The notes beneath the pieces were generated by a model. It ran no database searches. It had not been told where the DNA came from and worked only from the letters and a program-made list of their open reading frames with translations. Positions 3,332-64,000 of a DNA stretch of 64,000 bases are shown here, one piece after another. This DNA is from Lepidostoma basale (Eukaryota; Arthropoda; Insecta; Trichoptera; Lepidostomatidae). A program made the translations under genes and the position numbers. How positions within the stretch are numbered: position 1 is the stretch's first letter; each line of letters opens with the position of its first letter. The stretch covers positions 248,001-312,000 of the forward strand of contig JAHDVF020000527.1 in assembly GCA_022606425.2 (NCBI GenBank), given 5' to 3'.

Positions 3332-3368
3332 CTGATGAAGCTTAGGTAAAAGCGAAACTAGTTGGTAT
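3332..3368 (+). ncRNA. hammerhead-like core, family HF-F
   Basis: CTGATGA at 3332-3338, one extra A, stem II GCTT/AAGC (3340-3343 with 3350-3353), GAAA at 3354-3357, then the palindrome ACTAGT and cleavage-site-type T at 3363. Stem I is not convincing: the flanks pair only if about three bases are bulged. Core conserved, folding uncertain. It lies just upstream of the composite element at 3497-4047, and the sequence between them (3370-3490) is shared with the copy near 22600. Confidence 0.4.
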
Positions 3369-3496
3369 AATTTAATTCTTGTACAAACTGCTTATTTATA
3401 TTATTTTATGTAATAATTTCTGTTTGTACCGTTTTGATGTTAAAATTATACAAGTTTATTCGTATATATTATATAAAAAAAAATTACCGTTGTTCC

Positions 3497-4047
3497 AATG
3501 ACTAACTAACTAACTAACCATCACGCCGTTTCACCGAAGGGATAGGCAGAAATAATGGACTGCCACACTTTAACCGATGCAGCATTCTATCCTTCTCTTT
3601 TCGCCCCCGCGGGGAACGAAATTTTGAGTAATTTCTTCAATAATACTTTAAAGTTCTTGCTGGTGTTAAATTGTTTTAAGTGCCTAATTACAGTTATTTA
3701 AAAGTACGGTGGATACGTGGAATATAAATTAAATTAACACAAAATTCCGGATTATCCAGCTGACAACATGTGCACTTATCTAAAATAACATTATGTGTTA
3801 TATGATATTTATTTTGTTATTTTATTTTATATCTTTGTATTTTATATTATTTGTTTTAGTTGTATTTTGTGGACGTTGGACGATCGAAGAGTGCGTGGGA
3901 GATGAATATTGGTGGCGATGAGGTTTTCAACCCATCACACCGCGTCTCCCGCGGGGGCGAAAAGAGAAGGATGGAGTGGCTCATCGGTTAAAGTGTGGCA
4001 GTCCATTCTTTCTGCTTACTCTTCGGAAAAACGGCGTGATGGTTATT
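3497..4047. mobile_element. composite non-autonomous element with GTTA-LINE terminus
   Basis: The right part (about 3620-4047, plus strand) ends with the last ~60 bp of the GTTA-LINE, but its body is unrelated to LINE coding: a run from ggacgttggacgatcgaag to cgcgggggcgaaaagagaagg. Sister copies on the minus strand are at 10147-10430 and 22195-22560. The left part (3497-3616) is an inverted partial copy beginning (CTAA)n, so the pair is a fold-back around about 330 bp. I infer a SINE-like parasite of the GTTA-LINE machinery. Box GGTTCGCAACCC in the 10-kb copy resembles a B box; no clear A box. Confidence 0.6.
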
Positions 4048-4101
4048 TTTTTTTAAATAATTTAATAAATTAGTTCTAAAAAGGCAAAAAATATATAGGT
4101 T

Positions 4102-4174
4102 TGGAGGCGCCGGGTATCGATCCCGGTACCTCTCACATGCTAAGCGAGCGCTCTACCATCTGAGCTACGCCCCC
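4102..4174 (-). tRNA. tRNA-Ala (AGC)
   Basis: The minus strand folds as a full cloverleaf: acceptor GGGGGCG/CGCCTCC with one G-T pair, D arm with GCTCAGATGGTAGAGC, anticodon stem CTCGC/GTGAG around loop TTAGCAT (anticodon AGC), T arm CCGGG-ATCGATA-CCCGG, discriminator A. CCA is not encoded, as expected for a nuclear gene. An oligo-T run (complement of 4086-4091) downstream would serve as Pol III terminator. Identical over all 73 nt to copies at 13153-13225 and 36657-36729. Confidence 0.95.
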
Positions 4175-4549
4175 GGTTGAAAGTGTCCTGTTTAAAAACG
4201 GTTTTATAGCGATTGAATAACCTTGTTCTGGTTTACGTGACGTAATTTGAAACAATACCCATACCAACCGCTTGTTATTGAATGCCAATCGCGTATTACG
4301 AGTACCTACTTTCTCTTACTTGTATTGGAATCAATCGACCATTCGCTTGGGATCAAACTTAAGACTAATGTACTCATCAAACATCGCAATTATAACTTAT
4401 TCAAAGAAAATATAAATAAGACAGTCTATTGTTTTGGCAGAAACGATATGGTACTTCAACATTATTGCGAGGTGTTCTAATTTTTAAACTCTCTTATTAT
4501 AGGAATCACAATTTATTTTTCTAAGATTTTTGCGACAGATACTCCTGAG

Positions 4550-4995
4550 TTGTTTGCAAAAATTAACACAGAGTACCGCAGTCTCGAAGCAAAAAGAAAA
4601 GGTACATTGATGATCTTAGGATTTAAAATACTCCGTAACCTCATTGATAGCCCATACCTCTTAGAGTGTCATGGCCTCAATGCACCGGACAGGTATGCTC
4701 GCGCTAGAAGACACGATCTGTTGTGCATACCGCATAGCAGGACAAATGTCTTGGCGCAGCATACAATGACCCGGGGTATGGTGCTCTTGAATGAGGTGTC
4801 AGTCGATGTGGACATTCTCCAAATGACCTATACGTCCTTTAAGGAAAATATAGGTACATACAACAATTGCTAATATTGTTTTATTTTATTTTAATTGTTT
4901 TATTTTAACATATATTTTGTGTGTATATATGTAAAATGTATGTAAAATGTATATAGTAATAGGGTTCTAAAGACCTGTCGTCTACAAAAAAAAAA
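4550..4995 (+). mobile_element. Jockey-like LINE 3' end, second subfamily
   Basis: Reads as an RT C-terminus: SLEAKRKGTLMILGFKIL, then RARRHDLLCIPHSRTN and GMVLLNEVSVDVDILQM, the RTN...LLN...DVD pattern of the Jockey-like 3' ends in this window but clearly diverged from them. The 3' UTR ends agtaatagggttctaaagac then cctgtcgtctac and poly(A) at 4986-4995. That terminus closely matches the 3' end of the SINE at 6385-6611. 5' truncated. Confidence 0.7.
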
Positions 4996-5139
4996 CACCT
5001 GATGATGCCAATATTCATTGGAGAAACAGCTGTCACAACAATGTTATAAAAATGTTGTACATTTTCATACCAATAATAACTGTAAAGAAAAATGTGGCGA
5101 AATTGTTACGAGTGTCAGATTGGAGGGTCGAAGCGAAGG

Positions 5140-5205
5140 ACTGGAGGAGTCCATTCTTTCTACCTACCCCTCCCGGGGAGACGGCGCGATGGTTAGTTAA
5201 TTAGT
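5140..5205 (+). mobile_element. GTTA-LINE terminal stub
   Basis: Only the last ~65 bp of the family: gtccattctttctacctacc, gggagacggcgcgatgg and ttagttaattagtt. Upstream sequence (5000-5130) has an HF-A-like half arm (gatgatgccaatattcattggagaaacagctgtcac). Confidence 0.7.
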
Positions 5206-5327
5206 TTTGTTTTAAATATAAAATATCATAAAAGCTGTAGCGTATATAACTTATATGTGGCAAAGCAAAATCGTGTTATTTATTAACCTTTCTTTATGAA
5301 AATACTTTATGAATGACATAAATACAA

Positions 5328-5690
5328 GACGCGGGCTGACACTGTGCGAACCAAGGGACTACTAAGAACATCGGAGATGAAGGTCCTAAGATCAATTACT
5401 GGAAAAACCCTCCGAGATCGTGTCCGCAACGCAAACATAAGAAAAACCTGCGAAATAGAGGTTACCGTTCAGTGGAGTAGATCCAGAAGAAGATATTGGA
5501 GGGACCATGTAGCCCGAATGGATGGTGACAGACTCGCATATACAGCCGCTAATGAAATCCCTTCCAGACACCGCCCACCTGGAAGACCGCCTAAGAGATG
5601 GAGGGACAGCTGCATCTCATCATCCGACGAGATATGATTTCTGTGTCACAGATCGTCAGATCTATCAAAAGAAGAAGAAGAATAAGAAGA
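5328..5690 (+). mobile_element. SRRRY-LINE 3' end with 10-bp TSD
   Basis: Encodes ADTVRTKGLLRTSEMKVLRS, TLRDRVRNANIRKTCEIE, RSRRRYWRDHVARMDGDRL, then PPGRPPKRWRDSCISSSDE, followed by the 3' UTR and (GAA)n. This is the C-terminal tail beyond the RT palm. A direct repeat ataaatacaa at 5318-5327 and 5691-5700 is the target-site duplication. 5' truncated by reverse transcription. Frameshift between the two halves. Confidence 0.9.
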
Positions 5691-5700
5691 ATAAATACAA

Positions 5701-6384
5701 TGTATTTATGTCATAGAAGAGGAGGTGGAACCGTAATACACTAATATCTTCAACATCCATGCGACGTGTCATACTCACTCGTCGATTTTCACGTGGTGCG
5801 ATGATTGCGTAAAGTGTCCAGAGAACTTTTAGTCTGCAAGGTGACCGATAGAATGTATTATAATAATAAAAAAAAACAGGTATTCTTAGTAAGGTTACAA
5901 TTCTTAGTAAGGTTATAAAAACAATTAAGTATGAAATCATGAGTGAAGCAATAATACATCTCTAGACTCTAGTCTGCACATGAAATCACATCTTCACAGA
6001 ATTACCCCTTTTTGCATCCCTTTTGGCGCGGCAGACAACCCCTTCCCCTGCGCATCCTTCACGATGTGAAGAGGCCCAACTTGTGCTGTTTTGTGCTTTT
6101 ATTTCGCCATGTTTTCTGAGTGCTCTTCTCACAACTGCAAAAGGAATGACGAACCCTAGTTTCAAAAGGCAAGGCGCATCATACGTGTTAGTGGTATGTT
6201 TGGTTATGATATAATTTCATCCAAAGATTCCTTGTTTAAAAAAAACATTGTAGTTTATATAAGTAATATTATTAAAAATATGTTAAACGATAGTGCATTT
6301 TTATAATTTATTTATTATAGAAAAAAAAATTCTGTGAGTTTTTTCATATGGAAGAGTATAATTAAATGAAGCATTTGATAATCT
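5701..6384. other. no gene; degenerate LINE scrap
   Basis: About 5745-5815 resembles a decayed minus-strand GTTA-LINE piece (catgcgacgtgtcatactc). The rest, including the GC-richer 5990-6180, shows no feature I can assign. Confidence 0.4.
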
Positions 6385-6611
6385 TCGACGACCTTCATGG
6401 CAGAGTGGTAAGAGCTCTGATTTCCATACCAAAGGTCACGGGTTCGATTCTCGGCGATGACAGTGTGATTGTCACACTCTCTTTGGTCTGGTGTAGAATT
6501 CACGCGACAGTAAAATGGCGATAGATCAGCTACCTATCACATGTCACGAGAATCAATATAATAGCTATACAGTAATAGGTTCAAACGACCTGTTGTATAC
6601 ATAAAAAAAAA
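6385..6611 (+). mobile_element. tRNA-derived SINE, subfamily with LINE-like tail
   Basis: The head has Pol III boxes: A box around tggcagagtgg (6398-6408) and B box ggttcgattc (6441-6450). The body gtgtgattgtcacactctct then ttggtctggtgtagaattcacg is shared with five other copies in this window. Unlike them, this copy ends agtaataggttcaaacgacc, tgttgtatacat and poly(A), closely matching the 3' terminus of the LINE ending at 4995. SINEs borrow LINE machinery through such shared tails, so that LINE is the likely partner. Confidence 0.85.
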
Positions 6612-6639
6612 TCACATATTTAAGTCGAACAAACAACTT

Positions 6640-7530: not shown

Positions 7531-7612
7531 TTTTTAGTATTATAAAGCAAACCAATCCATTTAATTCAATACTAATCATCAATGATCAAGTAATAATACT
7601 AATCATCAATGA

Positions 7613-8210: not shown

Positions 8211-8573
<363 letters not shown>

Positions 8574-8985: not shown

Positions 8986-8999
8986 TAACATATATTCAT

Positions 9000-10430: not shown

Positions 10431-10572
10431 GCACATATAAGTTATTTTGTAATATTTAATGCAAAAGAAAGTTATTTTTTATTCTTTCGTATGAAACACT
10501 TAGATTGTAGTGTAGCATTATTAAAAATAAATTAAAAACACTTTTACTAGTATTTACACCGTTTGATTTATG

Positions 10573-10620
10573 TGAAAACCAACCGGATTCGCTCCCGTCG
10601 GAGCTTCGTCAGGGTTACAA
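10573..10620 (-). ncRNA. hammerhead-like ribozyme motif, family HF-F
   Basis: Minus strand: CUGACGA (10606-10612), one extra A, stem II GCUCC/GGAGC with a GACG loop, GAA then U at position 15.1 (normally A), CCGG, U, U at the cleavage position, and a 4-bp stem I AACC/GGUU, extendable with a G-U pair. An inverted partner on the plus strand (10632-10672) keeps GGGAGCGAAACTGGTT but has UUGGCGA in place of CUGANGA. The fold is plausible; the U15.1 change probably weakens it. Confidence 0.55.
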
Positions 10621-11084
10621 AATAAATTGGCGAGGTTCTGTCGGGAGCGAAACTGGTTGATTTTTACGAAAATATAGTTGTGTAAAAAATAATAAAAGTG
10701 TTTTTAACATATTTTTTGTAATTATGTATGTACATTTTAAAGGTCTTCCTTATAAAATATAAGATTTATATGATTTGACCACGTCATTCACCGAGAAGAT
10801 GACTACATCAGAAAATCTGCTCTTCGAATCACAACTGTCATGAGGGGTAGATAAATAAGTATGAAGAACAGATAATACATATTTTATTACCAAAATGTTT
10901 CAATTGATGGGAAAAAACGTTGATAGCATTTTGATGTTTTTTTACGAATTAAAAACTTTTTTCGCTTCGTAGTTTAATTTTCTTGACAAGTTTTTATAAT
11001 ATTGCACTATCATTATCGAGAGAATAATATAAAATCAGTTATTTTTATTATTAAAAGTATTATTTCAAATTTATAAAACATATT

Positions 11085-12559: not shown

Positions 12560-12720
12560 CAATTCGCCATATTGTTCGCCATACTTTGTGTTGTAGATGT
12601 ATTATATTTTTTTATATACAACACTCACTTTTTAAACAAATAAATATTTAATATCAAACATGTTTCGGACTACCCAGTCCTCCTTCTTCAGTGATATTAT
12701 GTAGATTTTAAAAATATTAT
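12560..12720 (-). mobile_element. HF-D repeat, half unit
   Basis: Begins with the family terminus ccatactttgtgttgtagat and carries the hammerhead motif on the minus strand (12649-12699). The opposite arm is absent. Confidence 0.7.
12649..12699 (-). ncRNA. hammerhead ribozyme motif, family HF-D
   Basis: Minus strand: stem I UAAUAUCA/UGAUAUUA, 8 perfect base pairs (12692-12699 with 12649-12656). CUGAAGA at 12685-12691, then A plus a 3-nt insertion GGA, stem II GGACU/AGUCC with GGGU loop, GAAA, CAUG, U, and U at the cleavage position. Stem III ACAUGU is self-complementary. The extra GGA before stem II, absent from the other HF-D copies, may impair the core. Confidence 0.6.
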
Positions 12721-13150
12721 AAAATTGTTTACAAATATGGTCAGTTTTGACAGATGTTATAAAGATTTATTATCTGTTCTGGTTCCAACTCGTATATATA
12801 TTTTTTTAGTTTTATATTATTATCAAATCAATCGCGAATATCCGTTCATATTTAGATGTTTAGATTTAAAACACGTCTTAATACCTCCTTGATGTGATTA
12901 AATCACGAAAACGGTGCTTTAGAAGTTAGCATATTATTAAAACATTGGAAGATACGTTTTCTGTTGGAAGTAAATAATCAAGAAACCCAAAAATAATAAC
13001 AATATTTAAAATTTTCATACAATAGAAGAGTTAAACATTTCAACGCATTAGTTTTACAGTTAAAATATTTAGTGACCAATTCAGTACTCGTTGCAAGAAT
13101 ATATTTTGGTCATTGTAATTTTTTAAGAATTATTGATTTAAAAAAAGAGG
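12720..13150. other. no feature seen
   Basis: AT-rich, unassigned. A related sequence (upstream of gatgcagcgttcacatatac) recurs near 53860-53960. Confidence 0.4.
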
Positions 13151-13152: not shown

Positions 13153-13225
13153 TGGAGGCGCCGGGTATCGATCCCGGTACCTCTCACATGCTAAGCGAGC
13201 GCTCTACCATCTGAGCTACGCCCCC
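13153..13225 (-). tRNA. tRNA-Ala (AGC)
   Basis: Identical 73-nt minus-strand tRNA to 4102-4174. Anticodon AGC in loop TTAGCAT; all stems pair. Downstream T7 run (complement of 13140-13146) is a strong Pol III terminator. Immediate flanks (agaggtttggagg on one side, ccccccggtga on the other) are shared with the third copy at 36657, so a little flanking DNA was duplicated with it. Confidence 0.95.
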
Positions 13226-15984: not shown

Positions 15985-16095
15985 GAGTGGTCCAGTCTGT
16001 GGATGCCAACGAGCCTGGCGAAATCGGTCGCTGTCGAAATAAAGACAAAAGTGGAAGTAGTTAAAAAAACATCGTTTTATTTCATTATTATGTAA
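15985..16095 (+). mobile_element. HF-C right arm only
   Basis: ggtccagtctgtggatgcca then acgagcctggcgaaatcggt and cgctgtcgaaataaagac, tail aagtggaagtagttaaaaaa. Box reads CUGUGGA in place of CUGANGA. Confidence 0.75.
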
Positions 16096-22700: not shown

Positions 22701-22799
22701 GACCAAAACAATTAACTTATAAACGAAAAATCTCCAAATTTACGGGAGCACCACATGAACTAAACAAAATTTTCAAAATCAGAACCAGGATTCACTATT

Positions 22800-23020
22800 A
22801 TTTAATGTTTAAATTTGAAACGCTGTTATTGTACGTATCGAAATTTTATTTTTATGGGTTTGTCCCGACAGCCGCTTCTCCAACCCTTGTTGGCATCATC
22901 AGGTGTAATAAACGACTTTTGTTGATGATGCCAACATAGGTTGCCAAAACAGCCATGTCGTGACCAACTCGTAAAAATAAATTGTCATTTATGTACCTCG
23001 TACAATAACAGTGTTTCATA
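22800..23020. mobile_element. HF-A fold-back copy
   Basis: Minus-strand arm: CUGAUGA, U, stem II CCAAC/GUUGG, GAAGC, GGCUGUC. Plus-strand arm: UUGAUGA, U, GCCAACAUAGGUUGCC, AAAAC. Outer flanks match cgctgttattgta and tacaataacagtg. Confidence 0.75.
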
Positions 23021-28299: not shown

Positions 28300-28439
28300 A
28301 CATAGTAGTGTATTTTTTATTAAAATTTTAATTTCTTCCACATGTTTGAATTTATTTTTATTGTTCGTTAACTATACTAACATCAGTAAACCACTTAAAA
28401 TAATCAAATGATTTTACTGAAATCTCTTGATGGAAGTTC

Positions 28440-28640
28440 ATTTTAAATAATAATTAAATAAAACGATGTTTTTTAACTACTTCCACTTTTGTCTTTATTT
28501 AGACAGCGACCGGTTTCGCCAGGCTCGCTGGCATCAACAGACTGGTCGTCGACGCATCAGTCGATGCCAGCGAGCCTGGCGAAACCGGTCGCTGTCTAAA
28601 TAAAGACAAAAGTGGAAGTAGTTAAAAAAACACTTAAAGT
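28440..28640. mobile_element. HF-C fold-back copy
   Basis: Near-perfect arms: aactacttccacttttgtct, ttatttagacagcgaccggt, ttcgccaggctcgctggcat and their complement. Plus-arm core: GAUG, stem II GCCAG/CUGGC, GAAA, palindrome ACCGGT, C, then GCUGUC. Confidence 0.85.
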
Positions 28641-32230: not shown

Positions 32231-32234
32231 TAGT

Positions 32235-32450
32235 CCATTGTTTTGGACGATCCACTAGGATACTTTAACATTATAAACTGTTCAATTAAAAAACTTTGTT
32301 TTATGTATCATAATTGTATTTTTATTTTTCGCGACAGCTGTTTCGTCAACCTATGTTGACATCATCAGGTGTTACAATTATATATCAAATGTCAATTTTT
32401 CGTGATACATAAAACAAAGTTTTTTTAATTTAACAGTTTATATAGAAGGT
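32235..32450. mobile_element. HF-A copy with best-conserved core
   Basis: Outer end gtagtccattgttttggacg. The minus-strand arm carries the intact core at 32331-32368. The plus arm is reduced to aaatgtcaatttttcgtgat then acataaaacaaag. Confidence 0.75.
32331..32368 (-). ncRNA. hammerhead-like core, family HF-A
   Basis: Minus strand: CUGAUGA (32362-32368), extra U, stem II GUCAAC/GUUGAC with AUAG loop, GAAA, CAGCUG, U, C. The ACAGCUGU palindrome could pair between two molecules. Flanks GUAACAC and GCGAAAAA pair at only two positions, so stem I is not evident. All other core positions fit consensus. Confidence 0.45.
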
Positions 32451-32599: not shown

Positions 32600-33430
32600 A
32601 TTTACTCTAAAAATTTATAACACTGTTATAATATCACAATTTATTTTCATTCACTGAGAGTGTCGGGACAGCTGTTTCGCCAACCGATGTTGGCATCATC
32701 AAGTGTTACAATAAAGTTTTTTTGTAACACCTGATGATGCCAACATCAGGTGGCGAAATACCTGTCGCGACACTCAGTGAATAATAATAAATTGTGATAT
32801 TATAACAGTGTTATAAATTATAACAGTAGAGGAGGGGGGGGGCAAAGTGGGATCCTTAAGGTTTGGTGACTCCTAAAATCGGTTATTGAAGATCTACATA
32901 TCCCATTTAAGCTGAAATTTATAGTTTGATATCTGATGTATAATTTTGCATATAAACTTTCATTTTAATATTGTAAATTTTGGCTCTATGAGCAATTTTA
33001 TGAAAAGTGGCATTTGTCCCGCTTTGCCCCACATACCGGGGCAAAGCGGGACAAATGCCACTTTTACTGCCATTATACCTTCGTTTATCAGCAACTCTGA
33101 AATTGAGGCGTTTAATCTGATAGAGTTTACCGAATTGACCAGTGATATTTCACCCCACTACATACATCCCAAACTGATTCCACGCTGAATTTAGACGACA
33201 CTTTTAACCAAAATGCAATTTTACAATAAATCACCGAAAACAAAAAAATCCGGCTTGCGGCAGCGTGCGACGGCAGTCTAGGGTATAAACCGACTACAGA
33301 CCAATCACCAAGCGTCATTTGAATTTAGATGCGACCGTTAATTTGTCCAATAACATGGGTATCCCTCTTTGCCCCGGGACCCCGCTTTGCCCCCCTCTCC
33401 CCTAATAATGTTGAAGTATCATAGGTGGCT
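32600..33430. mobile_element. HF-A fold-back interrupted by a TIR element
   Basis: Arms at about 32620-32720 and 32725-32826: caacatcaggtggcgaaata and its relatives; outer end resumes at 33405 (ataatgttgaagtatcatag) after the insertion at 32829-33402. Minus arm has UUGAUGA and plus arm GAAAU, so both cores are altered. Confidence 0.75.
32829..33402. mobile_element. 574-bp TIR element with TA duplication (Tc1/mariner-type MITE)
   Basis: Ends gaggagggggggggcaaag and, on the other strand, ggggagaggggggcaaagc. TA at 32827-32828 and 33403-33404. The HF-A consensus at this point (aacagtaataatg) has a single TA, so the empty site is visible. No transposase ORF. Inside is a perfect 28-bp palindrome (33003-33030 with 33038-33065, loop 7) whose centre repeats the terminal ggggcaaagcgggac motif. 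Confidence 0.88.
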
Positions 33431-36419: not shown

Positions 36420-36560
36420 ATTATTGTAACACCTGATGATGTCAACGTAGATTGACGGAACAGCTATCGCAAAAAAATTGCGATATATGAGTTTTATAAT
36501 TTAACAGTTAATAATGTTGAAATATCATAGTGTTTTGGACAAAACCTATGGACTATTTAA
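36420..36560 (+). mobile_element. HF-A right arm
   Basis: CUGAUGA, U, GUCAACGUAGAUUGAC, GGAAC, AGCUAUC, then taatgttgaaatatcatagt and gttttggacaaaacc. GAAAC has become GGAAC. Confidence 0.7.
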
Positions 36561-36656: not shown

Positions 36657-36729
36657 TGGAGGCGCCGGGTATCGATCCCGGTACCTCTCACATGCTAAGC
36701 GAGCGCTCTACCATCTGAGCTACGCCCCC
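36657..36729 (-). tRNA. tRNA-Ala (AGC)
   Basis: Third identical 73-nt copy on the minus strand. Downstream T6 run (complement of 36645-36650). Flanks agaggtttggagg and ccccccggtgag match those of the 13153 copy for a few bases. Immediately right of HF-A/HF-B debris. Confidence 0.95.
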
Positions 36730-37022
36730 CGGTGAGAACACTGTCTTAAAAAATAAATAAAACGCAGTATTTTGACATTGATCTTATTTAAATAGGTGTG
36801 TCCAGTGTCCACCTCTCGCATTCATGGACACTCTTCGAATCGACCATTTGGCCTCCACTTTCACTTTACAATTCGGCTTTAAATTATGGTTCCGTATAAC
36901 AACTATTTTGGTATATAGTTACGTAGTTTTGATTTCAAACATAAATTATTTATTTTATATTATATATTATATATTATTATTTTATATTATATTTCTAACT
37001 AGATTAACATCATTACTGTTAA

Positions 37023-37285
37023 AATTTAAAACATTGTTATAATATCACAATTTATTTTTATTCACTCCGAGTGTCGCGACAGCTGTTCCAAACGATGTTG
37101 GCATCATCAGGTGCTACAATAAACTTGTATTGTAACACCTGATGATGCCAACATCGGTTGGCGAAACAACTGTCACGACACTCGGAGTGAATAAAAATAA
37201 ATTGTGATATTATAACAGTGTTTTAAATTTTAACAGTAATAATGATGAAGTATCAGTGTTTCGGTCAAAAAAATAGACTATTAGA
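37023..37285. mobile_element. HF-A fold-back copy, best hairpin
   Basis: Arms of about 100 bp: cattgttataatatcacaat to gatgttggcatcatcagg, and tgtaacacctgatgatgcca to gatattataacagtgtttta. Plus core: CUGAUGA, U, GCCAAC/GUUGGC, GAAA, ACAACUGU, C. Minus core keeps CUGAUGA and ACAGCUGUC but has a 4-nt deletion removing GCGA. Neither copy shows a long stem I. Confidence 0.85.
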
Positions 37286-37354
37286 TTAACATCATGCCGT
37301 TTCATTTCACTTCATATTTTTGACTTTAACATTCTAACAAACACATATTTAACA

Positions 37355-38370: not shown

Positions 38371-38930
38371 GTAAACATTCTTCATGTATCCCATTTCTGT
38401 TGGAGGATTTGTTCCAAGCATACTTAAATGCAACGAATATCTGTGTCGAAAATGTAACATGCCGCTAATGACAGAGCTACTTTATTGTCGCGGAGACTCA
38501 GTGAATAGCACTCCGTTCACACAGTTTGCACGGCGGGTCAGACCGCAGTCCAATATCGTCCCAGTGGGCTAAAAAACAGTTGAATCGCAAGTCACGTGGG
38601 CGGCACGTGGCCCCACGTGGCGGGGATATTAAGGCGCCTGGTGGCACACGGTCTGACAGCGCGGGCGCTTGTGCTAAACCGGGATTGGTCCATTCGCTTC
38701 GGGATAACAATGGTGAATTGGGGTGACTTGGACTTGAAAACATATATTTGTAACACGTATTTTTTCTCATGTAACGAAATAACTTATTTGGTTTTCTTTA
38801 ACAGAAACTTAATATTTCAAAAATTAATGATGTTTTTTGATAATCCATTGTTTTGGCGGAAATACTTTGAAATTTCAACATTATTAACTGCTTAAATATA
38901 AAACTTAGTTATAAATATCACAATCGATTA
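38371..38930. other. GC-rich unassigned stretch
   Basis: 38490-38720 is CG-rich (cgggtcagaccgcagtccaa, ggcacgtggccccacgtggc). Could be an element's promoter or unique DNA. No coding signal recognised. Confidence 0.35.
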
Positions 38931-38934
38931 TATT

Positions 38935-39000
38935 TTGTCGCGACAGCTGTTTCGCTAGCCGATGTTAGCATCGCCAGGTCTTACAATCAACTAAAAAATA
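38935..39000 (-). mobile_element. HF-A left arm
   Basis: cgcgacagctgtttcgctag then ccgatgttagcatcgccagg: GAAACAGCUGUC preserved on the minus strand; box reads CUGGCGA. Confidence 0.7.
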
Positions 39001-40010: not shown

Positions 40011-40039
40011 TTAAGAGAACATTTAGTTTCTTCTATATA

Positions 40040-40330
40040 CGCCATACTTTGTGTTGTTATGATGGTTTAATTATATTATTCTTTTTTATACACTTTGTAT
40101 ATACAACACTTTTGTTAAAAAAAAATCTATTTAATGACTTACAGTCCTTCTTCAGTAAAGATACATATATAACATCTGTCAGATCATGTAAACAACAACA
40201 ATTTTATAATATTTTTATAAACATGTATCTTTACTGAAGAAGGACTGTTAGTCCGAAACATGTCTATTCAATTCAATTTTTTAAATAAAAGTGTTGTATA
40301 TACAAAGTGTATAAAAAATCAAAATTGGAA
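40040..40330. mobile_element. HF-D fold-back copy
   Basis: Outer arms ctttgtatatacaacacttt and aagtgttgtatatacaaagt. Plus core at 40227-40270: CUGAAGA, A, GGACU/AGUCC, GAAA, ACAUGU, C; stem I only 2 bp (UA/UA). The minus arm is cut inside stem II. Confidence 0.8.
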
Positions 40331-40429
40331 AAAAAACATTTTGTTTGTTTAGATTATCTAATGTTTTGGTGGAAACACGATATTTCAATATTTTTAACGG
40401 TTTAATATGGAACATTATTATATTATAAT

Positions 40430-40590
40430 ATCATAATTTATTTATTTAGTTAATATGAAATTGTCCAGACAGTTCTTAACACCGGATGATGCCAACATCG
40501 GTTGGCGAAACAGATTTTATGACAGTTTTATACATATAAAATTAATAAATTGTGATATTAAAACAATGTTTCAAATTAAATAATTAATTT
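40430..40590 (+). mobile_element. HF-A copy, decayed
   Basis: ttcttaacaccggatgatgc then caacatcggttggcgaaaca gattttatgacag. Box CGGAUGA; stem II and GAAAC intact; stem III lost. Confidence 0.7.
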
Positions 40591-40865
40591 GTCTTTTTCT
40601 TTTTTATATACCTACTTTGTATGTACAACACTATTCAAATTACATATCAGACCTGTTTCAGACAACCAGTATTTCATATTTAAATTATTATAAAATTGTT
40701 TACGAATATTTTAAATATGTATCTTTATAATATGTATCACTGAAGAAGGACTGGTTGTCCGAAACATGTCTGATATGTAATTTTAATAATGTTGTAGATA
40801 CAAAGTATATAAAAAAGAAAAAGACAAATAAAACATCTACAACACAAAGTATGGCGAACACAGAA
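40590..40865. mobile_element. HF-D fold-back copy with intact ribozyme
   Basis: Left arm ctactttgtatgtacaacac to aaattacatatcagacctgt; right arm contains the motif 40734-40776 and ends gttgtagatacaaagtatat. Confidence 0.8.
40734..40776 (+). ncRNA. hammerhead ribozyme motif, family HF-D, complete
   Basis: Stem I GUAUCA (40734-40739) pairs with UGAUAU (40771-40776), 6 bp including one G-U. CUGAAGA at 40740-40746, extra A, stem II GGAC/GUCC with UGGUU loop, GAAA at 40761-40764, stem III ACAUGU, cleavage C at 40770. Every universally conserved position fits the hammerhead consensus. The only departure is the one unpaired A before stem II, a variation I recall being described in a viroid hammerhead. 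Stem III is too short for a stable monomer, so a dimer is expected. Confidence 0.75.
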
Positions 40866-40899
40866 TAAATAAAAAATTAATGATAATATTTATTGATTT

Positions 40900-42078: not shown

Positions 42079-42973
42079 CTTCTTCTTCAATGGGCTGTAC
42101 AGCCCATATCGAGCCTTGGCCTCCAGTATTCTTCGCCTCCAACTCCTCCTGTCCTCCGCTTCGACCCTCCAATCTAACACTCGTAACAATTTCGCCCCAT
42201 CTCTCCCAACTTCGTCCTCCCATCGCAGCCTTGATCGTCCAATTAGTCTTCTACCACCTGGGTGCCACTCCAGTCATCTTTTTGGGGTTCGCGATGACGG
42301 CATCCTCTGCACGTGACCGGACAATCTCAGTCTATTCAGTCTGACCTGTGTGGAGAGACTGGGAGCTTTGTAAATATAGTACAGCTCGTCATTATACCAC
42401 ACTCTCCAGCCTTCACCGTCATTCACAGGTCCCAGAATTCTGCGCAGCACCCTTTTCTCGAAAGTATCCAGCTCTGCAGATTTCGCTGTCATTGTCCACG
42501 CCTCACATCCATATGTCACTACTGTTCCTATGATTGTTTTATACATGATGATTTTGGTTTTCCAGTGTACGTTTCTTGATTTGAACGGTGGTAGTAGAGA
42601 GAAGAATGTTTTGTTGCTAATTGTGATTCTTCTTTCGATTACCTTATGATCTTCGTTTTCTTTTGTTATAGACGAGCCCAGGTAAGTGAAGTCCTCCACC
42701 ATCTTAAAGTTGTATCTATCCTTGAATCTGATGGTTCGCCGTGAGTTATGGGATGCATTCCTGGTTTGTTTCATTATTTTTGTCTTTTCTTCGTTTATCT
42801 CTAAACCCATCTCCTTGGCTGCTGTCTCTAAAGGCTCAAATACTTCTTGTACGGCTGCTAGGGATCTTCCTACAATATTAAGGTCGTCTGCATATCCTGT
42901 GATCTGGCTGCTTTGAAAGTATGTGTTGGAATTCGTGTTAAGGTGATGTTTTCCATATGGCATATTCTAAGCA
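42079..42973 (-). mobile_element. PVND-LINE with RT catalytic box, 11-bp TSD
   Basis: The minus-strand ORF of 229 codons begins inside the RT palm: SSQITGYADDLNIVG (motif C, YADD), then GLEINEEKTKIMKQT (motif D), FTYLGSSITKENEDHKVIER, TVVTYGCEAWTMTAKSAELD, RVLRRILGPVNDGEGWRVWY, STQVRLNRLRLSGHVQRMPS, then a frameshift and the end. (CTT)n at 42079-42089 is the tail complement. Target duplication aagtaattaat at 42068-42078 and 42974-42984. Both catalytic aspartates of motif C are intact but motifs A and B are missing, so it is not autonomous. Confidence 0.93.
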
Positions 42974-46032: not shown

Positions 46033-46080
46033 AAAGAAGATGATGGCAGCGATCTGCCGAAACCGGTCGATACCATAAGC
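46033..46080 (+). ncRNA. hammerhead-like core, family HF-G
   Basis: GAUGA then U, stem II GGCAG/CUGCC (46045-46049 with 46054-46058) with CGAU loop, GAAA at 46059-46062, palindrome ACCGGT, C at 46068, then GAUACC, the 3' side of a stem I whose 5' partner GGUAUC is not present. The box reads AAGAUGA. A minus-strand relative is near 61358-61410. Confidence 0.35.
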
Positions 46081-51772: not shown

Positions 51773-52501
51773 TTTAAGATAACATATACGAGTATGTACT
51801 GTATCGAGTATGTTGATTTGATTATGTTAGCTCCCATATAGGCAGATGCGTGTATTATTTAACAACAACAACAAACCATCACGCCGTTTCTCCGCAGGGG
51901 TAGGCAGAGAGAATGGACCGCCACACTACTCTATCCTGGCAAACCTCTCTAGGTTCCTCCACATTCATACAACGAGTCATACACGCGCGTCGATTCCTCC
52001 GACTTCTAACATGACCAACCTTTAAAATTTGATTAATTTGGTGATGCCATGTTTTCCTCGGTCTGCCTCGACTTCGTACCCCATTTACATCATTAACGTA
52101 TACTTTCTTAACCATTCTTTCTCCATCCATGCGTTCCATATGTCGAAACCAACGCAGCGATCCTTTCATAATTTTGTTCATAATACCTTCTTCCGCTCTA
52201 CATTCCTTTCTTATATCAGCATTTGAGATTCTGTCGTATATCGTTCTACCACACATACGTCTTAGGGACCTGATCTCTACCGCATTTATTCTACTCTCAT
52301 CCTTCTTCTGCCAGTTCCATGCTTCGCTTCCATACATTAGGGTTGGGACCAGAACTCCATTGTGAACGGCCGTTTTCGCTTTCATTAACTCATCATTTAA
52401 GATTACATATACGAGTATGTACTGTATCGAGTATGTACTGTATCGAGTATGTTGATTTGATTATGTTAGCTCCCATATAGGCAGATGCGTGTATTATTTA
52501 A
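51773..52501. repeat. ~90-bp direct repeat flanking a LINE
   Basis: 51773-51862 and 52396-52501 are the same sequence (start tttaagat, end gcgtgtattatttaa). The right copy has an extra 16-bp tandem unit (tatcgagtatgtactg), and one base differs near the start. Interpreted as an unusually long target-site duplication of the enclosed GTTA-LINE. Confidence 0.9.
51863..52395 (-). mobile_element. GTTA-LINE 3' end, open frame, flanked by a long direct repeat
   Basis: Minus-strand ORF of 168 codons: MKAKTAVHNGVLVPTLMYGS, EAWNWQKKDESRINAVEIRS, LRRMCGRTIYDRISNADIRK, ECRAEEGIMNKIMKGSLRWF, GVRSRGRPRKTWHHQINQIL, MTRCMNVEEPREVCQDRVVW, then SILSAYPCGETA and stop. This is the best-preserved GTTA-LINE coding here and a natural reference for the family. 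The tail is (TTG)n-like. It lies between two copies of a ~90-bp sequence. Confidence 0.95.
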
Positions 52502-52929: not shown

Positions 52930-53170
52930 CTTTCTTCTATGTTCGCCATACTTTGTGTTGTAGATATTTTTTTTGTCTTTTTCGTTTTTATATACTTTGT
53001 ATATACAGATATATACAACATTAACTTTAAAAAAATTAAATATGTATCTTTATTATATCACTGATGAAGGACTGTTTGTCCGAAACATGTCTGATATATA
53101 ATTTTAATATTTTTTTAAAGTTAGTGTTGTATATACAATATATAAAAACGAAAAAGACAAATAAATAAGG
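52930..53170. mobile_element. HF-D fold-back copy
   Basis: Left outer end gttcgccatactttgtgttg then tatactttgtatatacagat; right side carries the ribozyme 53054-53098 followed by tagtgttgtatatacaatat. Confidence 0.8.
53054..53098 (+). ncRNA. hammerhead ribozyme motif, family HF-D, best candidate
   Basis: Stem I UAUAUCA (53054-53060) pairs perfectly with UGAUAUA (53092-53098), 7 bp. CUGAUGA (the canonical box) at 53061-53067, extra A, stem II GGAC/GUCC (53069-53072 with 53078-53081) with UGUUU loop, GAAA at 53082-53085, self-complementary ACAUGU, cleavage C at 53091. The layout is type I (open at stem I). Stem III can be only 2-3 bp in a monomer but 6 bp in a dimer, as described for Penelope-element hammerheads. 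I predict cleavage between 53091 and 53092. Confidence 0.78.
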
Positions 53171-58870: not shown

Positions 58871-58876
58871 TTTTTA

Positions 58877-59023: not shown

Positions 59024-59243
59024 ATATTGGAAATCAATTAAAGTTTTTTGTAGGTTTTCGGATGAAACCGATTTTTTTAAGCATTTTCCTATTCTACTTG
59101 ACTTTTTTTCTACAGGTAAATTTTTTGTTTAATTATGTAAGTAAACAATACAATGGAGATTTTAAAAAGAGTCTTTATCTTTGGTTTTAAACTTTGAATA
59201 TGATAAAATAAGAATAAAAATTTAAATAAAATGTTAAAAAAAA

Positions 59244-59567
59244 ATCCGTAAATCAGAAGGACTATCTATTATTTTACGGTCCCACAAATCTAGTGTTAAG
59301 AACAAACCCGTGATACAGGAGGGCTACCTATTATTTTACGATCCCGTAAATCTAGTGTTTAGAACAAACCCGTGATCCAGGAGGGCTACCTATTATTTTA
59401 CGATCCCGTAAGTCTAGTGTTAAGAACAAACCCGCGATACAGGAGGGACTACCTATTATTTTAACGGTCCCATAAATCTAGTGTTAAAAACAAACCTATG
59501 ATATCGGATGGATATCAGATCTAGTGTTAAAACCCATGATACAGGAGGGCTACCTATTATTTAATTA
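59244..59567. repeat. 62-bp minisatellite, about five units
   Basis: Unit: aaatctagtgttaagaacaa, acccgtgatacaggagggct, acctattattttacgatccc, gt. The tctagtg marker recurs at 59289, 59351, 59413, 59477 and 59520; the last unit is shortened and diverged. Confidence 0.95.
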
Positions 59568-60040: not shown

Positions 60041-60049
60041 ACTGCCATA

Positions 60050-60400
60050 GTAGCTTTTTCGGATATGTTTTTGTTTGCGATGACAACTTTAAGTGCACCG
60101 TTCCAATCGCCCATCTTTTGTAAACATACTACCCAAATACACGAACTCATCTACTTGCTCTAAATTTCATATATATTGTAGACTTTCATGATTTCTTCTC
60201 ATTCAAAAATCATTACCTTGGACTTATTCACATTCATTATCAGATCATTTCGCATGCATACCTCATACAAACTATTCACCAGGAATTGTTGTTCATGCTC
60301 GTTGACTGCAAGTAGGACAACGTTATCCGCATACAAGAGACAGCTTACTGACATTTCGCTCATTTTGGCACCTACATCCGACCCTTTCAGCTCTTTCATA
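60050..60400 (-). mobile_element. GTTA-LINE RT palm fragment (YADN)
   Basis: Minus strand: MKELKGSDVGAKMSEMSVSC, LLYADNVVLLAVNEHEQQFL, VNSLYEVCMRNDLIMNVNKS, KVMIFE then stop. Motif C is YADN in place of YADD, removing one catalytic aspartate. Motif D (LIMNVNKSKVMIF) is intact. It abuts a plus-strand copy of the same family at 60405, giving a head-to-head pair. Confidence 0.88.
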
Positions 60401-60404
60401 CAAT

Positions 60405-61100
60405 GTGCACAATGGTGTCCTTATACATTTCCTTATATGTGGAAGCGAAGCATGGAACTGGCAAAAGAAGGATAAAAGTAGAATAAATCTCCTCGGTTTC
60501 CTCGGAGATCGACGTCTTTCATGTTAGTGAAAGTACGTTCAGAAAGCAAATACTCTTAATTCTGGAGAGTATCCTGTCTTCCTAATGTTGAACCATCTCT
60601 TATGCGTTTCTGGTAGTATACTATATGTAATATATTATTTTACCTGTTCTCAATAGATGCCTTAAAAATAAAATTTGTAATGCCTGTTGATGAAATAAAC
60701 TGATTTGATTTGATTTGATTGATAAATGCAGTAGAAATGAGATCTCTTAAACGAATGTGTGATACTCTGTGTATGAGAGAGTGTCGAATGAAAATATAAG
60801 TATTGAATGATGGTGTAATGGACAAAATAATGAGAGGATCATAAAGATGGTTTGGACACATGGAAAGAATCAATGAAGAAAGATTGGTAAAAAAAAGTTT
60901 ATGTTAACGATGTAAATGGAACTAGAAATAGATCAAATGAATCAAATATTGAATGTCGGATACATGAGGAAGTAGGAAAAACGACACGCGTGCAAGCCAC
61001 GATGTATGAATGTTGAGGAATCGAGAGAAATATGTCAGGAAAGAAAAGTGTGGCAGTCCATTCTTTCTGCCTACTAGACGGCGTGATGGTGAGTTAGTTT
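60405..61100 (+). mobile_element. GTTA-LINE 3' end split by a Jockey-like insertion
   Basis: 60405-60488 (tgcacaatggtgtccttata, gcgaagcatggaactggcaa) continues at 60722 (ataaatgcagtagaaatgag) through RWFGHMERINEERLV and the terminus ctactagacggcgtgatggt. Frameshifts present, tail reduced to gagttagttt. Confidence 0.88.
60489..60721 (+). mobile_element. Jockey-like LINE 3' end, 6-bp TSD
   Basis: VSSEIDVFHVSESTFRKQIL-like coding in frame fragments, 3' UTR ttttacctgttctcaataga, tail tgatttgatttgatttgatt. Flanked by ataaat at 60483-60488 and 60722-60727, inside collinear GTTA-LINE sequence. Clean insertion, so its age is less than that of the host copy. Confidence 0.92.
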
Positions 61101-61147
61101 ATTATATATATTTTTTAAATTTAGTTTCATTCTATTTGTTTTTCTAG

Positions 61148-61285
61148 TAAACCCCAGCAGCAAGGGACTACCAGGAAGACTGGCGAGGAAATAGAGGGAT
61201 GACTGGATGGCATCGTCCCAGGAAAATTCACCGTTACAAACAGGTACATTTAAAGCAAGAGATAGAAGAACATAAAGTTATTATA
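61148..61285 (+). mobile_element. SRRRY-LINE 3' scrap
   Basis: NPSSKGLPGRLARK then stop, RDDWMASSQENSPLQTGTFK; no clear (GAA)n tail. Confidence 0.6.
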
Positions 61286-61314
61286 TTAGGAATGCGCAGT
61301 AGGAATCAAATTTC

Positions 61315-61425
61315 GTCTTCTCACAGGGTATTCTTTTGATGGATCAACAATAGTATCGACCATTTTCATCAGTTCGCTGCCATCTTCTGATGGGTAGACC
61401 GACGAGGTATCAAATCCGATCGAAA
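61315..61425 (-). mobile_element. HF-G scrap
   Basis: Minus strand: AGAAGA, U, GGCAGCGA.., GAAAAUGGUC, GAUACU. Related to 46033-46080. Confidence 0.4.
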
Positions 61426-61604
61426 CTAAAAAAAATTAGTGGTTTAAAAATGTTTGCTTTTATTTCGTGAATCATAGTTTATAACTCCATATAAAATATT
61501 AAATAAATGAACTACATCAAGGGTAAACTTAAGCGGTCTATAATCGTAAGAAGAAACATCCAGAAACACTTTATGATATTGTAAAACTTCCTAAAGAAGT
61601 ACGA

Positions 61605-61820
61605 TTTTAAAAAAGAATGAAATAAAACGATGTTTTTTTTAACTACTTCCACTATTGTCTTTATTTCGATAGCGACCGGTTTCGCCAGGCTCGCTGGCAT
61701 CGACAGACATCGACATATCAGTCTGTCGATGCCAGCGAGTCTGGCGAAACCGATCGCTGTCCAAGTAAAGACAAAAGTGGAAGTAGTTAAAAAAACATCG
61801 TTTTATTTAATTATTATTTA
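61605..61820. mobile_element. HF-C fold-back copy
   Basis: Left arm aactacttccactattgtct to cgctggcatcgacagac; right arm gtctgtcgatgccagcgagt then ctggcgaaaccgatcgctgt, ending aaaaaacatcgttttattta. Plus core: CUGUCGA, U, GCCAG/CUGGC, GAAA, CCGAU, C; stem I CAGU/GCUG. Confidence 0.85.
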
Positions 61821-61824
61821 AAAT

Positions 61825-62635
61825 TAACTACCATCAAGAGATTTCAGTAAAATCATCTGATTATCTTAAGTAAGATTTTATCAATATTCGGTATAACTTT
61901 GAAACCGGTTAAAGAAAATAACATTAATTGTTATCAGGTATGTAGACAAGTAATATAATTATCATATGCCCTAATAATAACAAATGGTAAATAATTTACA
62001 TAAAACTTTATTTCACTTCAATGAAAACGTTAGTTACCCAATTCTGCAAGCGCAAGTGTTTTTTTATTCGTCCCTAAATCGCAATTAGAATGCCTCATCA
62101 TCAGAATAGTCAATTCAATAGTTAATGATGAATTGTACAACGGCTAGCCTTGTTAATCTTTGTCTCTGTGTATAAATTCACCATTGTCGCCCATTCGCCA
62201 AATACGCGTGACAAAACGTCGACAAAAAGATGTTCGCGACTCTATCGTTACTCATAATTCGTGACGTTTCCAAGGGTGTATTCGCGCTAGGGGTGCTAGG
62301 GTGCTTCCAGCAAGGAGTGCGCATCGAATCGCTGTTTTGTTCGTCTTTAACTCCCGTCACGCGGGGGTTATGACGAAGTTGCATAAAAGTGATACAATGA
62401 AAAATTGGCCCTTGAATACAAGATTGATATGCCCTTGCATTATAATGTACGTGTTAATAGGGGTATGTTTCTTTTGTGCTTTGAAGGGGTTGCAAACAAA
62501 AATACGTCATTATCAAACTATTCATAGCAAAATGTTTAACCAATGTGGTGTTTATATCGTAATAATTTACGCTTTTTTTATTATTTTTTTAATAACATAA
62601 AATTCATGAAGTTTAAAACATGACAAGTTTAATAT
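61825..62635. other. no feature recognised
   Basis: 62170-62380 is the GC-richest unique-looking part of this end (cgcgctaggggtgctagggt). A 99-codon plus frame at 62301-62600 has hydrophobic segments but matches nothing I know. Confidence 0.35.
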
Positions 62636-62639
62636 TTAA

Positions 62640-62725
62640 AAATGACTAGTAAAAACGTCTGTGTTCTAGAAAATTTATAACATTTTATGGGAATGACATG
62701 TTCAGACAGACAGACATAATATTGT
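62640..62725. mobile_element. HF-B left arm
   Basis: aaaaacgtctgtgttctaga to tgggaatgacatgttcagac, then a short (CAGA)n. Confidence 0.6.
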
Positions 62726-62831
62726 TCCTTTGTATTGTAGCGATTTTTAATTGCGTTTATTAATAGTTTTTCTTCGTTTTGATTTTATTATATATTTACA
62801 TAGTATAATTCTATGGAATTCAATGGTTTTA

Positions 62832-62945
62832 AAGCCTTCTTCTTCTTCTTTAACAGCCGTTGTCGTCCACTGCTGGACATACTTCTCCATGTATGACATG
62901 GTACTTGGGATCAGATCAATCCTCCAGCGTAGCATGCCTTACCTT
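62832..62945 (-). mobile_element. LINE 3' end scrap with (GAA)n
   Basis: Minus strand: MLRWRIDLIPSTMSYMEKYV, QQWTTTAVKEEEE; (CTT)n at 62837-62850. Confidence 0.7.
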
Positions 62946-62949
62946 TTTA

Positions 62950-63685
62950 TAAATTAATAAATTATGGCATTGTTTTTTTTCAAATGTAAATTATGATTTT
63001 TTTTTTTAATAAATCTTATTGAGGGTAACAAACAGCAAACACAGTATATAAATATAAACACGAAGAGATAACAAAACAAGGCCAATTACATTCTACTACA
63101 AATATTATACGAGAAACAGCGATCTACGCGCCCGTGGCAAACAGGAAAACCCTCGTATAACAACTGACATAAGATTAAATATATAAGAAGAATAAAGTAA
63201 TATTTTAATGAGTTAAAGAGAAAAATAGTAATACTAGTACTAGTAATAATGAATAAGTGATTTTTTATATATATATCTCTAGACAGCAACACAGGGTGTG
63301 TAAAAAATCATTATGGGAGAGGAAAGTGGGTAAGATTGGTCTCAGGATTAAGACTCGACCATGCGAAAATAAAATCCAGAATATATAGGAAGGTTTAGTT
63401 GGGTTAAGAGATACGGGAGGGGGTGTGGTACCAGAATGGATTGATAGAGTTTTGGCTGGCTGGAGATTAAAACGGGAATGCTTTTTTCTCTTCACGCTTG
63501 ATTATTCACGGTAAAAAAATAATCAGCCTGTGTTTGGTTTGAATAATTTTTTACTAACTTTTTTTGTATTTTATTAGAAAATTCAGAGATGTTAACATGT
63601 ACAAACGTATTTTTCTAATAAGCATATAATTTTGTGTCTTGATATTTTTATTATATAAAATAAAGCAAAAATTTGTTTTTATTGT
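62950..63685. other. no feature seen
   Basis: AT-rich; 63290-63480 is of balanced composition and unassigned. Confidence 0.4.
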
Positions 63686-63689
63686 GTTA

Positions 63690-64000
63690 TCCATTGTTTT
63701 CGTGGTACACCCTATATATGGTACTTACATATTTTTAACGGTTTAATTTGGTGCACTGTTATAATATCATAATCTATTTAAACTTTCATATGAAGCACTA
63801 AGTTTGTGATGTGACATTATTAAATAAAATAATAATACAGTTTTAGTAATTTGTATTACCACCACTTTATTTACCACAATAAAGTGGTGTTAATACACAT
63901 TACTAAAAGTGTATTGTTATTTTATTTAACAGTTTATTTATTTAAATGCCATAAAAATGTAGCTGTGTTGCTAACCAATATGATGCCAATACAGGTTGGC
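63690..64000. mobile_element. HF-A edges around a 110-bp hairpin repeat
   Basis: HF-A outer end at 63690-63775 (tccattgttttcgtggtaca). 63822-63932 is an inverted repeat with ~50-bp arms (taccaccactttatt and aataaagtggtgtta at the centre). Its left flank resembles 10490-10550, next to the HF-F ribozyme. A new HF-A arm begins at 63970 (tatgatgccaatacaggttg) and leaves the window. Confidence 0.65.

What the first reader, a model, noticed from the sequence alone, without database searches (positions are those of the whole stretch)
3332..64000. At least seven fold-back repeat families sharing one ribozyme-like blueprint
HF-A to HF-G differ in flanks and stem sequences but nearly all follow: CUGANGA-like box, exactly one extra nucleotide, stem II, GAAA(C), a 6-8-nt self-complementary stem III, then C or U. 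Examples are at 3332, 10573, 32331, 40734, 46033, 53054, 61720 and 8281. The single extra nucleotide after A9 is constant across families; I recall one precedent, a viroid hammerhead. Such a radiation of non-autonomous, inverted, hammerhead-bearing repeats in one 64-kb window would be notable. Inference: termini or derivatives of Penelope-like retroelements.
Basis: partly seen in the sequence, partly recalled or inferred. Interest (0 to 1): 0.9.

Follow-up and report, generated by a model that had tools for sequence, protein, structure and literature searches.

The report
Penelope retroelement ends with hammerhead motifs
These hairpin-like repeats bear the hallmarks of the ends of Penelope-type jumping genes carrying a small self-cutting-RNA motif, and their paired, lopsided structure hints at how such genes paste themselves in from both sides of a cut.

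Summary
The blueprint is real. A structured scan finds 17 motifs with exactly one extra nucleotide (7 with a perfect core) against 0.9 and 0.08 per shuffle. Across families stems I and II covary and stem III is mostly a palindrome. Six exact patterns hit 27,466 genome sites. Six window families are genome repeats; the 3332 motif is not shown to be one. The Penelope inference holds for several families: family 3 (61720) flanks 747/758-aa RT+GIY-YIG frames, motifs of families 5 (8281) and 4 (10573-like) lie just downstream of GIY-YIG matches, family 2 (40734) adjoins Penelope coding fragments; family 1, 46033 and 3332 have no coding link. Fold-backs are head-to-head pairs. In 35 of 41 scorable pairs one outer end carries the Penelope 'tail' and the other does not; 13 of 34 show shared flanks of 8 nt or more. 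I read them as products of two-ended target-primed reverse transcription. Minimal hammerheads, tails and inverted repeats of Penelope elements are known; the one-tail rule, the spread of a core variant (U6, 8,665 sites) and the scale are additions. Self-cleavage was not testable.

The parts
37006..37281 (.). Family 1 head-to-head fold-back: arm 37006-37125 (-, ends at the short site) and arm 37128-37281 (+, ends with tail); motif box 37139 (+)
   Evidence: perfect core, one extra T, stem II GCCAAC/GUUGGC
37000..37009 (+). left copy of target-site duplication TAGATTAACA
37282..37291 (+). right copy of target-site duplication TAGATTAACA
32231..32378 (-).
32602..32828 (.). Family 1 fold-back (32602-32715 - and 32718-32828 +), boxes 32702 (-) and 32731 (+); both ends short, an exception to the one-tail rule
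36421..36556 (+). Family 1 copy, box 36433; stem II GUCAA/UUGAC, one core mismatch
38840..38992 (-). Family 1 copy, box 38977 (-), compensatory stem II GCUAAC/GCUAGC
40362..40577 (.). Family 1 fold-back, degenerate; box 40483 (+)
22791..22992 (.). Family 1 fold-back, degenerate; one outer end truncated
40584..40868 (.). Family 2 fold-back (40584-40709 -, short end; 40705-40868 +, tail ATGGCGAAC...); box 40740 (+)
40028..40339 (.). Family 2 fold-back (40028-40124 -, tail; 40168-40339 +, short); box 40234 (+)
52932..53165 (.). Family 2 fold-back (52932-53040 -, tail; 53036-53165 +, short); box 53061 (+), perfect core, stem I AUAUCA/UGAUAU
12573..12771 (-). Family 2 copy, motif at 12691 (-) with a four-nt spacer
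61596..61869 (.). Family 3 fold-back (61596-61708 -, short end; 61716-61869 +, tail); boxes 61706 (-) and 61723 (+), CUGUCGA
28395..28629 (.). Family 3 fold-back (28395-28546 -, tail; 28557-28629 +, truncated, not scored); box 28540 (-)
15992..16095 (+). Family 3 copy, box 15997
10517..10722 (.). Family 4 fold-back; box 10612 (-); a decayed second motif in the right arm, by eye
8255..8534 (.).
   Evidence: same motif family downstream of GIY-YIG in L096
46031..46085 (+). 46033-family motif, box 46039 (AAGATGA), stem II GGCAG/CUGCC, palindrome ACCGGU
   Evidence: one head-to-head pair on C779
3324..3378 (+). Isolated motif at 3332: perfect core, one extra A, weak stem I; no repeat family shown

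Best explanation
The repeats are the 3' ends of several families of GIY-YIG-bearing Penelope-like retroelements and short relatives that share their end structure. Each carries one minimal type I hammerhead motif (one extra nt after A9, palindromic stem III) in its untranslated end. The fold-back form arises at insertion: the endonuclease cuts both target strands some 8-12 bp apart, each 3' end primes reverse transcription of element RNA, one at the 'tail' site and the other about 40 nt upstream at the 'short' site, and the two cDNAs are joined head to head through a chance palindrome or filler. Shown here: the motif and its covariation; the coding link for family 3 and, by proximity or fragments, for families 2, 4-like and 5; shared flanks; spacers that differ between copies; the one-tail rule. 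Inferred: membership of family 1 and 46033, the order of steps, priming of both strands on RNA, and that cleavage by the motif is not needed.
For: Motif excess; genome counts with one reversed-pattern hit in all; covariation score 0.575 against 0.150 shuffled and at most 0.168 slid, 15 rows chosen by me. Coding links: L091/L092, L096, L103, L105-L107, L040/L056. Outer ends short+tail in 29 of 34 scorable pairs of families 1-2 (46 pairs found, 12 with a truncated end dropped) and 6 of 7 of family 3 (8 found, 1 dropped): 35 of 41, one-sided p 2.4e-6 under even assortment. Shared flanking strings of 8 nt or more in 13 of 34 pairs against 4.0% of 544 swapped controls; all 13 are short+tail. Spacers of 14 complete family-1 pairs are 2-51 nt and differ by eye. 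Neighbours within 700 nt on the capped lists, by eye: 14 head-to-head, 2 direct, 0 tail-to-tail; 18, 0, 0. Literature: the Anolis element cleaves and extends both strands, its tail lies between two RT start sites, and ribozyme mutants do not affect insertion in vitro (PMC11167929, main text read).
Against: That paper saw no difference in start site between strands in vitro. 6 of 41 pairs break the rule (3 tail-tail, 3 short-short). 21 of 34 pairs share no flank string of 8 nt. No Rfam hammerhead match up to E 10 (uninformative, nothing rang anywhere). No coding link for family 1, 46033 or 3332. Of 17 loci beside GIY-YIG matches, picked by me out of 150, 12 carry the motif in sense, 1 is cut off inside it, 1 has only antisense pieces and 3 have none. 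Only 12 of 30 family-4 loci keep a motif with at most one core mismatch near the centre.
Confidence: 0.72

Rival explanations
1. Self-priming: one cDNA folds back on itself and copies a second arm, as proposed for rotifer Penelope elements (on an antisense template; PMC3846280, passages).
For: Head-to-head order; several family-2 junctions are shared by both arms over 5-18 nt (negative gaps); arms of a pair are usually of one subtype (16 of 18 pairs agree at N7 on the list, by eye).
Against: A copied arm should not end at a different, precise site in 35 of 41 pairs; spacers differ and reach 51 nt; 2 of 18 listed pairs differ at N7, one of them also in loop length.
Confidence: 0.17
2. Ordinary TIR DNA transposons or MITEs that happen to share a hairpin.
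For: Inverted repeats with shared flanks.
Against: Family 3 arms flank RT+GIY-YIG frames; 5' starts of family-2 arms are spread from 1 to 151; spacers differ. No transposase search was made.
Confidence: 0.05
3. The motif is kept as an RNA structure for recognition or dimerisation and is no longer, or not always, a working ribozyme. This is compatible with the best explanation.
For: Family 3 has U at core position 6 yet 8,665 sites, against one A6 form seen on the list; 0 of 46 family-1 and 1 of 46 family-2 arm starts lie just after the predicted cut site (site placed by me); PMC11167929 reports that cleavage is not needed for insertion in vitro.
Against: G8, A9 and G12-A14 are nearly invariant across families, as catalysis would require, though the rows were chosen by the motif; the effect of A6 to U is recalled, not tested.
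Confidence: 0.4
4. Head-to-head pairs are two separate insertions at one hot spot.
For: AT-rich targets; 51 unpaired fragments were also found (duplicates not removed).
Against: Shared flanks surround the pair as a whole in 13 of 34; no tail-to-tail pairs on the lists; one-tail rule.
Confidence: 0.06

Closest known systems
Minimal type I hammerheads of Penelope-like elements (Cervera and De la Pena 2014; Lunse et al. 2017; neither held, neither read)
   Same: Reduced stem III, thousands per animal genome, located in Penelope repeats, thought to cleave as dimers (as described in passages of PMC7761336 and PMC6155905)
   Different: I could not check whether those sets also carry one extra nucleotide; [quoted passage not shown]
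Endonuclease-containing Penelope of the rotifer Adineta vaga (PMC3846280, passages)
   Different: Very low copy number there; the tail is called optional and no one-per-pair rule is counted in the passages I saw; self-priming preferred; hammerhead does not occur in the text (0 occurrences)
PAc, Anolis Penelope element (PMC11167929, main text)
   Same: Two RT start sites bounding the tail, both target strands cleaved and extended, hammerhead dispensable for insertion in vitro
   Different: Direct tandem copies; hammerhead overlaps the ORF start; no strand difference in start site in vitro
Metazoan retrozymes (PMC7229834, start of abstract in a listing; PMC7761336, passages)
   Same: Short non-coding units of about 150-300 bp with type I hammerheads
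   Different: Direct repeats and circular RNA there; here mostly inverted pairs (one direct pair of 157-nt spacing in L027)
Viroid hammerhead with an extra nucleotide (De la Pena and Flores 2001; title seen in a reference list)
   Same: One extra nt in the core (its position is recalled)
   Different: Viroid RNA, no link to Penelope

Membership tests
Penelope-like element (EN+) | RT and GIY-YIG in one frame | tested here: met
   L091 747 aa: RVT_1 1.2e-13, GIY-YIG 4.8e-5; L092 758-aa open frame 99% identical. Shown for family 3; families 2, 4-like and 5 only by fragments or proximity
Penelope-like element (EN+) | optional 30-40-nt tail beyond the terminal repeat | tested here: met
   two 3' ends about 40-50 nt apart in families 1-3
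Penelope-like element (EN+) | terminal repeats in direct and/or inverted orientation | tested here: met
   456-nt, 99% inverted repeats in L091; inverted family-3 ends in L092; no second sense motif, so no sign of a direct pair, in either
Penelope-like element (EN+) | target-site duplication | tested here: met
   13 of 34 pairs share 8 nt or more, swapped controls 4.0% of 544
Penelope-like element (EN+), family 1, 46033 and 3332 | coding relative with the same end | tested here: inconclusive
   no coding fragment found by tblastn of 121 proteins against 94 sequences then held; longer flanks could not be fetched
Hammerhead ribozyme (type I, minimal) | three helices around the CUGANGA / GAAA core | tested here: met
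   80.8% of cells paired against 54.2% shuffled; helix 1 68%, 2 92%, 3 78%. In helix 3 only one of three pairs changes on both sides; helix 3 needs two RNAs
Hammerhead ribozyme (type I, minimal) | invariant core CUGANGA | tested here: inconclusive
   met in copies of families 1, 2, 4, 5 and at 3332; not met in family 3 (U6) and at 46039
Hammerhead ribozyme (type I, minimal) | match to an Rfam hammerhead model | tested here: not met
   no hammerhead match up to E 10 in the window or in one 86-nt motif stretch
Hammerhead ribozyme (type I, minimal) | self-cleavage | not testable with these tools
   needs in vitro RNA
Metazoan retrozyme | direct repeat units | tested here: not met
   32 head-to-head, 2 direct, 0 tail-to-tail neighbour pairs on the capped lists, by eye
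Metazoan retrozyme | circular RNA | not testable with these tools
   needs RNA data
TIR DNA transposon / MITE | transposase-bearing relative with the same ends | not tested
   no transposase search was made; family 3 ends flank RT+GIY-YIG instead

The most novel reading that the evidence does not exclude
The palindromic stem III is kept because it makes the element RNA dimerise. A dimeric RNA in a dimeric Penelope particle supplies one template to each strand of the cut target, so a complete insertion is a head-to-head pair with one tail end and one short end. Self-cleavage is secondary, which is why a family with an altered core (U6) could still reach 8,665 sites.
Probability: 0.2. Interest if true: 0.8.

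Novelty: new member of a known kind. Interest (0 to 1): 0.52.

Why it matters
The integration route of Penelope-like elements and the role of their hammerheads are described as open in PMC11167929 and PMC7761336. A genome with tens of thousands of motif copies, many of them in head-to-head pairs, is a natural record of that reaction: the one-tail rule and the neglect of the cut site are countable predictions for biochemical tests. In practice, such fold-backs give weak matches to microRNA and sRNA models and could be miscalled as these or as MITEs.

Tried and rejected
Rfam: the window scan and an 86-nt scan gave tRNAs and sub-threshold miRNA, sRNA and snoRNA matches, no hammerhead; RF00008 over the genome found nothing, but nothing rang in the controls either, so it says nothing. 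Whether arms of a pair are more alike than random arms: 0.904 against 0.880 (family 1) and 0.900 against 0.879 (family 2), too close to decide. The 3332 motif as a repeat family: not supported. tblastn did not link family 1 to coding sequence. A third family-2 locus, L045, has a Penelope fragment (E 7e-4) in the orientation opposite to its motif. Within-family covariation of family 1 stem II is modest: 3 compensatory rows among 17 distinct ones, reached by 15 of 2000 shuffles. PDB by sequence: only a weak RT match (E 0.003). Transposases were not searched for. Papers: Penelope + Lepidoptera + hammerhead returned none; hammerhead + palindromic + stem III + retrotransposon + inverted returned none; Penelope + foldback + inverted repeats + SINE returned five, of which I saw passages of one; one extra nucleotide returned three, not opened. 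I saw no statement of the one-tail rule in what I read or in the listings; papers not held could contain it.
Full report
OBSERVATION. A structured scan (box CUGANGA, spacer of 0-4 nt, stem II of at least 4 pairs, GAAA, at most one core mismatch) was run on both strands. It gave 17 hits with a one-nucleotide spacer, 7 of them with a perfect core. Twelve dinucleotide shuffles gave 0.92 and 0.08 per shuffle. Spacers of 0, 2, 3 and 4 nt gave 1, 0, 3 and 2 hits against 0.5, 1.2, 0.9 and 1.0.

HELICES. I aligned 15 copies from eight motif groups and named the hammerhead helices. 80.8% of cells pair, against 54.2% after shuffling; 45 cells change on both sides, against 16.7; the covariation score is 0.575 against 0.150, and at most 0.168 for slid versions. 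Stem II is the strongest (92% of cells). Stem I (68%) is good in families 2-6 and poor in family 1, at 46039 and at 3332. Stem III (78%) is a self-complementary string, so its pairs need two RNAs; only one of its three pairs changes on both sides. Within family 1 the evidence is thinner: 3 compensatory rows of 17. Row choice was mine.

SCALE. Exact patterns, each fixing three or four pairs of stem II, hit the 769-Mb genome 4,852, 7,317, 2,319, 4,247, 66 and 8,665 times, 27,466 in all; reversed patterns hit once. The last pattern carries U instead of A at core position 6. All 60 centre motifs of the fetched family 1 and 2 loci have one extra nucleotide. These loci were picked by the motif. The 30 family-4 loci were picked by overall similarity, and 12 of them show that motif near the centre with at most one core mismatch.

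PENELOPE LINK. GIY-YIG (PF01541) has 150 listed matches (541 candidates). L091 and L092 contain 747- and 758-aa open frames; the L091 frame has RT and GIY-YIG domains and the L092 frame is 99% identical to it. L091 has 456-nt inverted repeats, 99% complementary. Both loci carry the 61720-family motif once on each strand, pointing outwards. No ATG starts the listed frames and relatives are often 800-830 aa, so they are probably slightly 5'-truncated. L093 is a head-to-head pair of two truncated elements with the same ends. Of 17 loci beside GIY-YIG matches (L091-L107, chosen by me), 12 carry the motif in sense orientation with up to two core mismatches or an imperfect closing pair: L091-L097 and L101 (eight loci: family 3 in six, family 5 in L096, a divergent one in L094), L103 (like family 4) and L105-L107 (family 5). 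L099 is cut off inside the motif, L102 has antisense pieces only, and L098, L100 and L104 have none. For L094-L107 the stretch between GIY-YIG match and motif was not wholly read. Family 2 copies in L040 and L056 have Penelope C-terminal coding fragments on their 5' side. The closest named relative of the L091 protein is from the moth Phthorimaea operculella (43% identity). That makes a lepidopteran or other insect host likely but does not prove it.

ANATOMY OF THE FOLD-BACKS. Arms of families 1 and 2 were mapped against typed consensus strings in 90 loci and the window, family 3 in 107 loci and the window. Each family has two precise 3' ends about 40-50 nt apart. The longer one reaches an ATG and a few codons (family 2 ...ATGGCGAACATAGAAGAA; family 3 ...ATGAACTTCCATCAAGAG), which matches the Penelope tail of PMC3846280, explained in PMC11167929 as the stretch between two RT start sites. 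Of 46 pairs of families 1-2, 12 with a truncated outer end were dropped; of the other 34, 29 have the tail at one end and not at the other, 3 at both and 2 at neither. Of 8 family-3 pairs 1 was dropped; 6 of 7 follow the rule and 1 has two short ends (by eye). Together 35 of 41; with even assortment the one-sided chance is 2.4e-6. Flanks share a string of 8 nt or more in 13 of 34 pairs, against 4.0% of 544 swapped controls, and all 13 are one-tail pairs. Spacers between 14 complete family-1 pairs are 2-51 nt long and differ by eye; four of them (L013, L016, L019, L029) contain pieces of the arm's own 5' end, as a template jump might leave. No statistical test of spacer likeness was made. On the capped lists, neighbours within 700 nt are head-to-head 14 and 18 times, direct 2 and 0 times, tail-to-tail never (by eye).

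MECHANISM. Fold-backs with differing centres and shared flanks look as if each was made anew at its insertion and went in as one unit. The simplest reading is two-ended target-primed reverse transcription: a staggered cut, both 3' ends priming on element RNA, one at the tail site and one at the short site, and the two cDNAs joined at the centre. The Anolis protein cleaves and extends both strands in vitro, but without a strand difference in start site. The one-tail rule is therefore not explained by that work and may need a second step or a shared template. The rival is self-priming (PMC3846280), which explains head-to-head order and junction palindromes (several family 2 gaps of -5 to -18) but not two different precise ends.

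THE RIBOZYME. 0 of 46 family-1 and 1 of 46 family-2 arm starts fall just after the predicted cut site (site placed by me from the motif), so these copies come from RNA not cut there, in agreement with the mutants in PMC11167929. Family 3 multiplied with an altered core. In a fold-back transcript the motif would also be paired with its own complement in the other arm, so these loci themselves are probably poor self-cleavers (inference). Cleavage was not testable here.

LIMITS. Family 1 and 46033 lack a coding partner, and 3332 is an isolated motif. Transposases were not searched for. Because the two key papers on Penelope hammerheads are not held, I cannot say whether the extra nucleotide is already reported there.

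Noticed in passing
window 4102-4174, 13153-13225, 36657-36729: Three tRNA matches on the minus strand with identical aligned letters and scores (56.5 bits), as if one unit had been copied; possibly a SINE head or repeated genes.
   Followed up: no
window 3221-3292 / 3501-3572 and 3543-3618 / 3943-4018: Inverted repeats with GTTAGTTAGTTAG and CATCACGCC sequence in which I saw no hammerhead motif; similar strings appear beside some fetched loci (L005, L046, L051, by eye).
   Followed up: no
window 32637-32794, 61670-61813, 63824-63925: Hairpins give Rfam matches to miRNA and sRNA families below the curated scores (up to 52 bits): a possible source of false small-RNA annotation.
   Followed up: partly
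window 59232-59503: 62-nt tandem repeat, 4.4 copies, 87% matches.
   Followed up: no
window 42274-42966 (-) and 51879-52460 (-): Open frames that look like remnants of LINE-type reverse transcriptase polyproteins (e.g. YADDLNIVG, judged by eye, not searched).
   Followed up: no
L094 (C677:10800-11500): A further motif group, not seen in the window, beside a GIY-YIG match: TTGAAAA T GCC..GGC GAAA, 10-nt palindrome ACAAATTTGT, 4 of 4 stem I pairs.
   Followed up: partly
L027 1486-1759: Two family-1 units in direct order, 157 nt apart, beside an inverted arm: possible retrozyme-like arrangement.
   Followed up: partly
window 23285 (+): Motif CTTAGGA A GGGC..GCCC GAAA with one core mismatch, of no identified family.
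   Followed up: no
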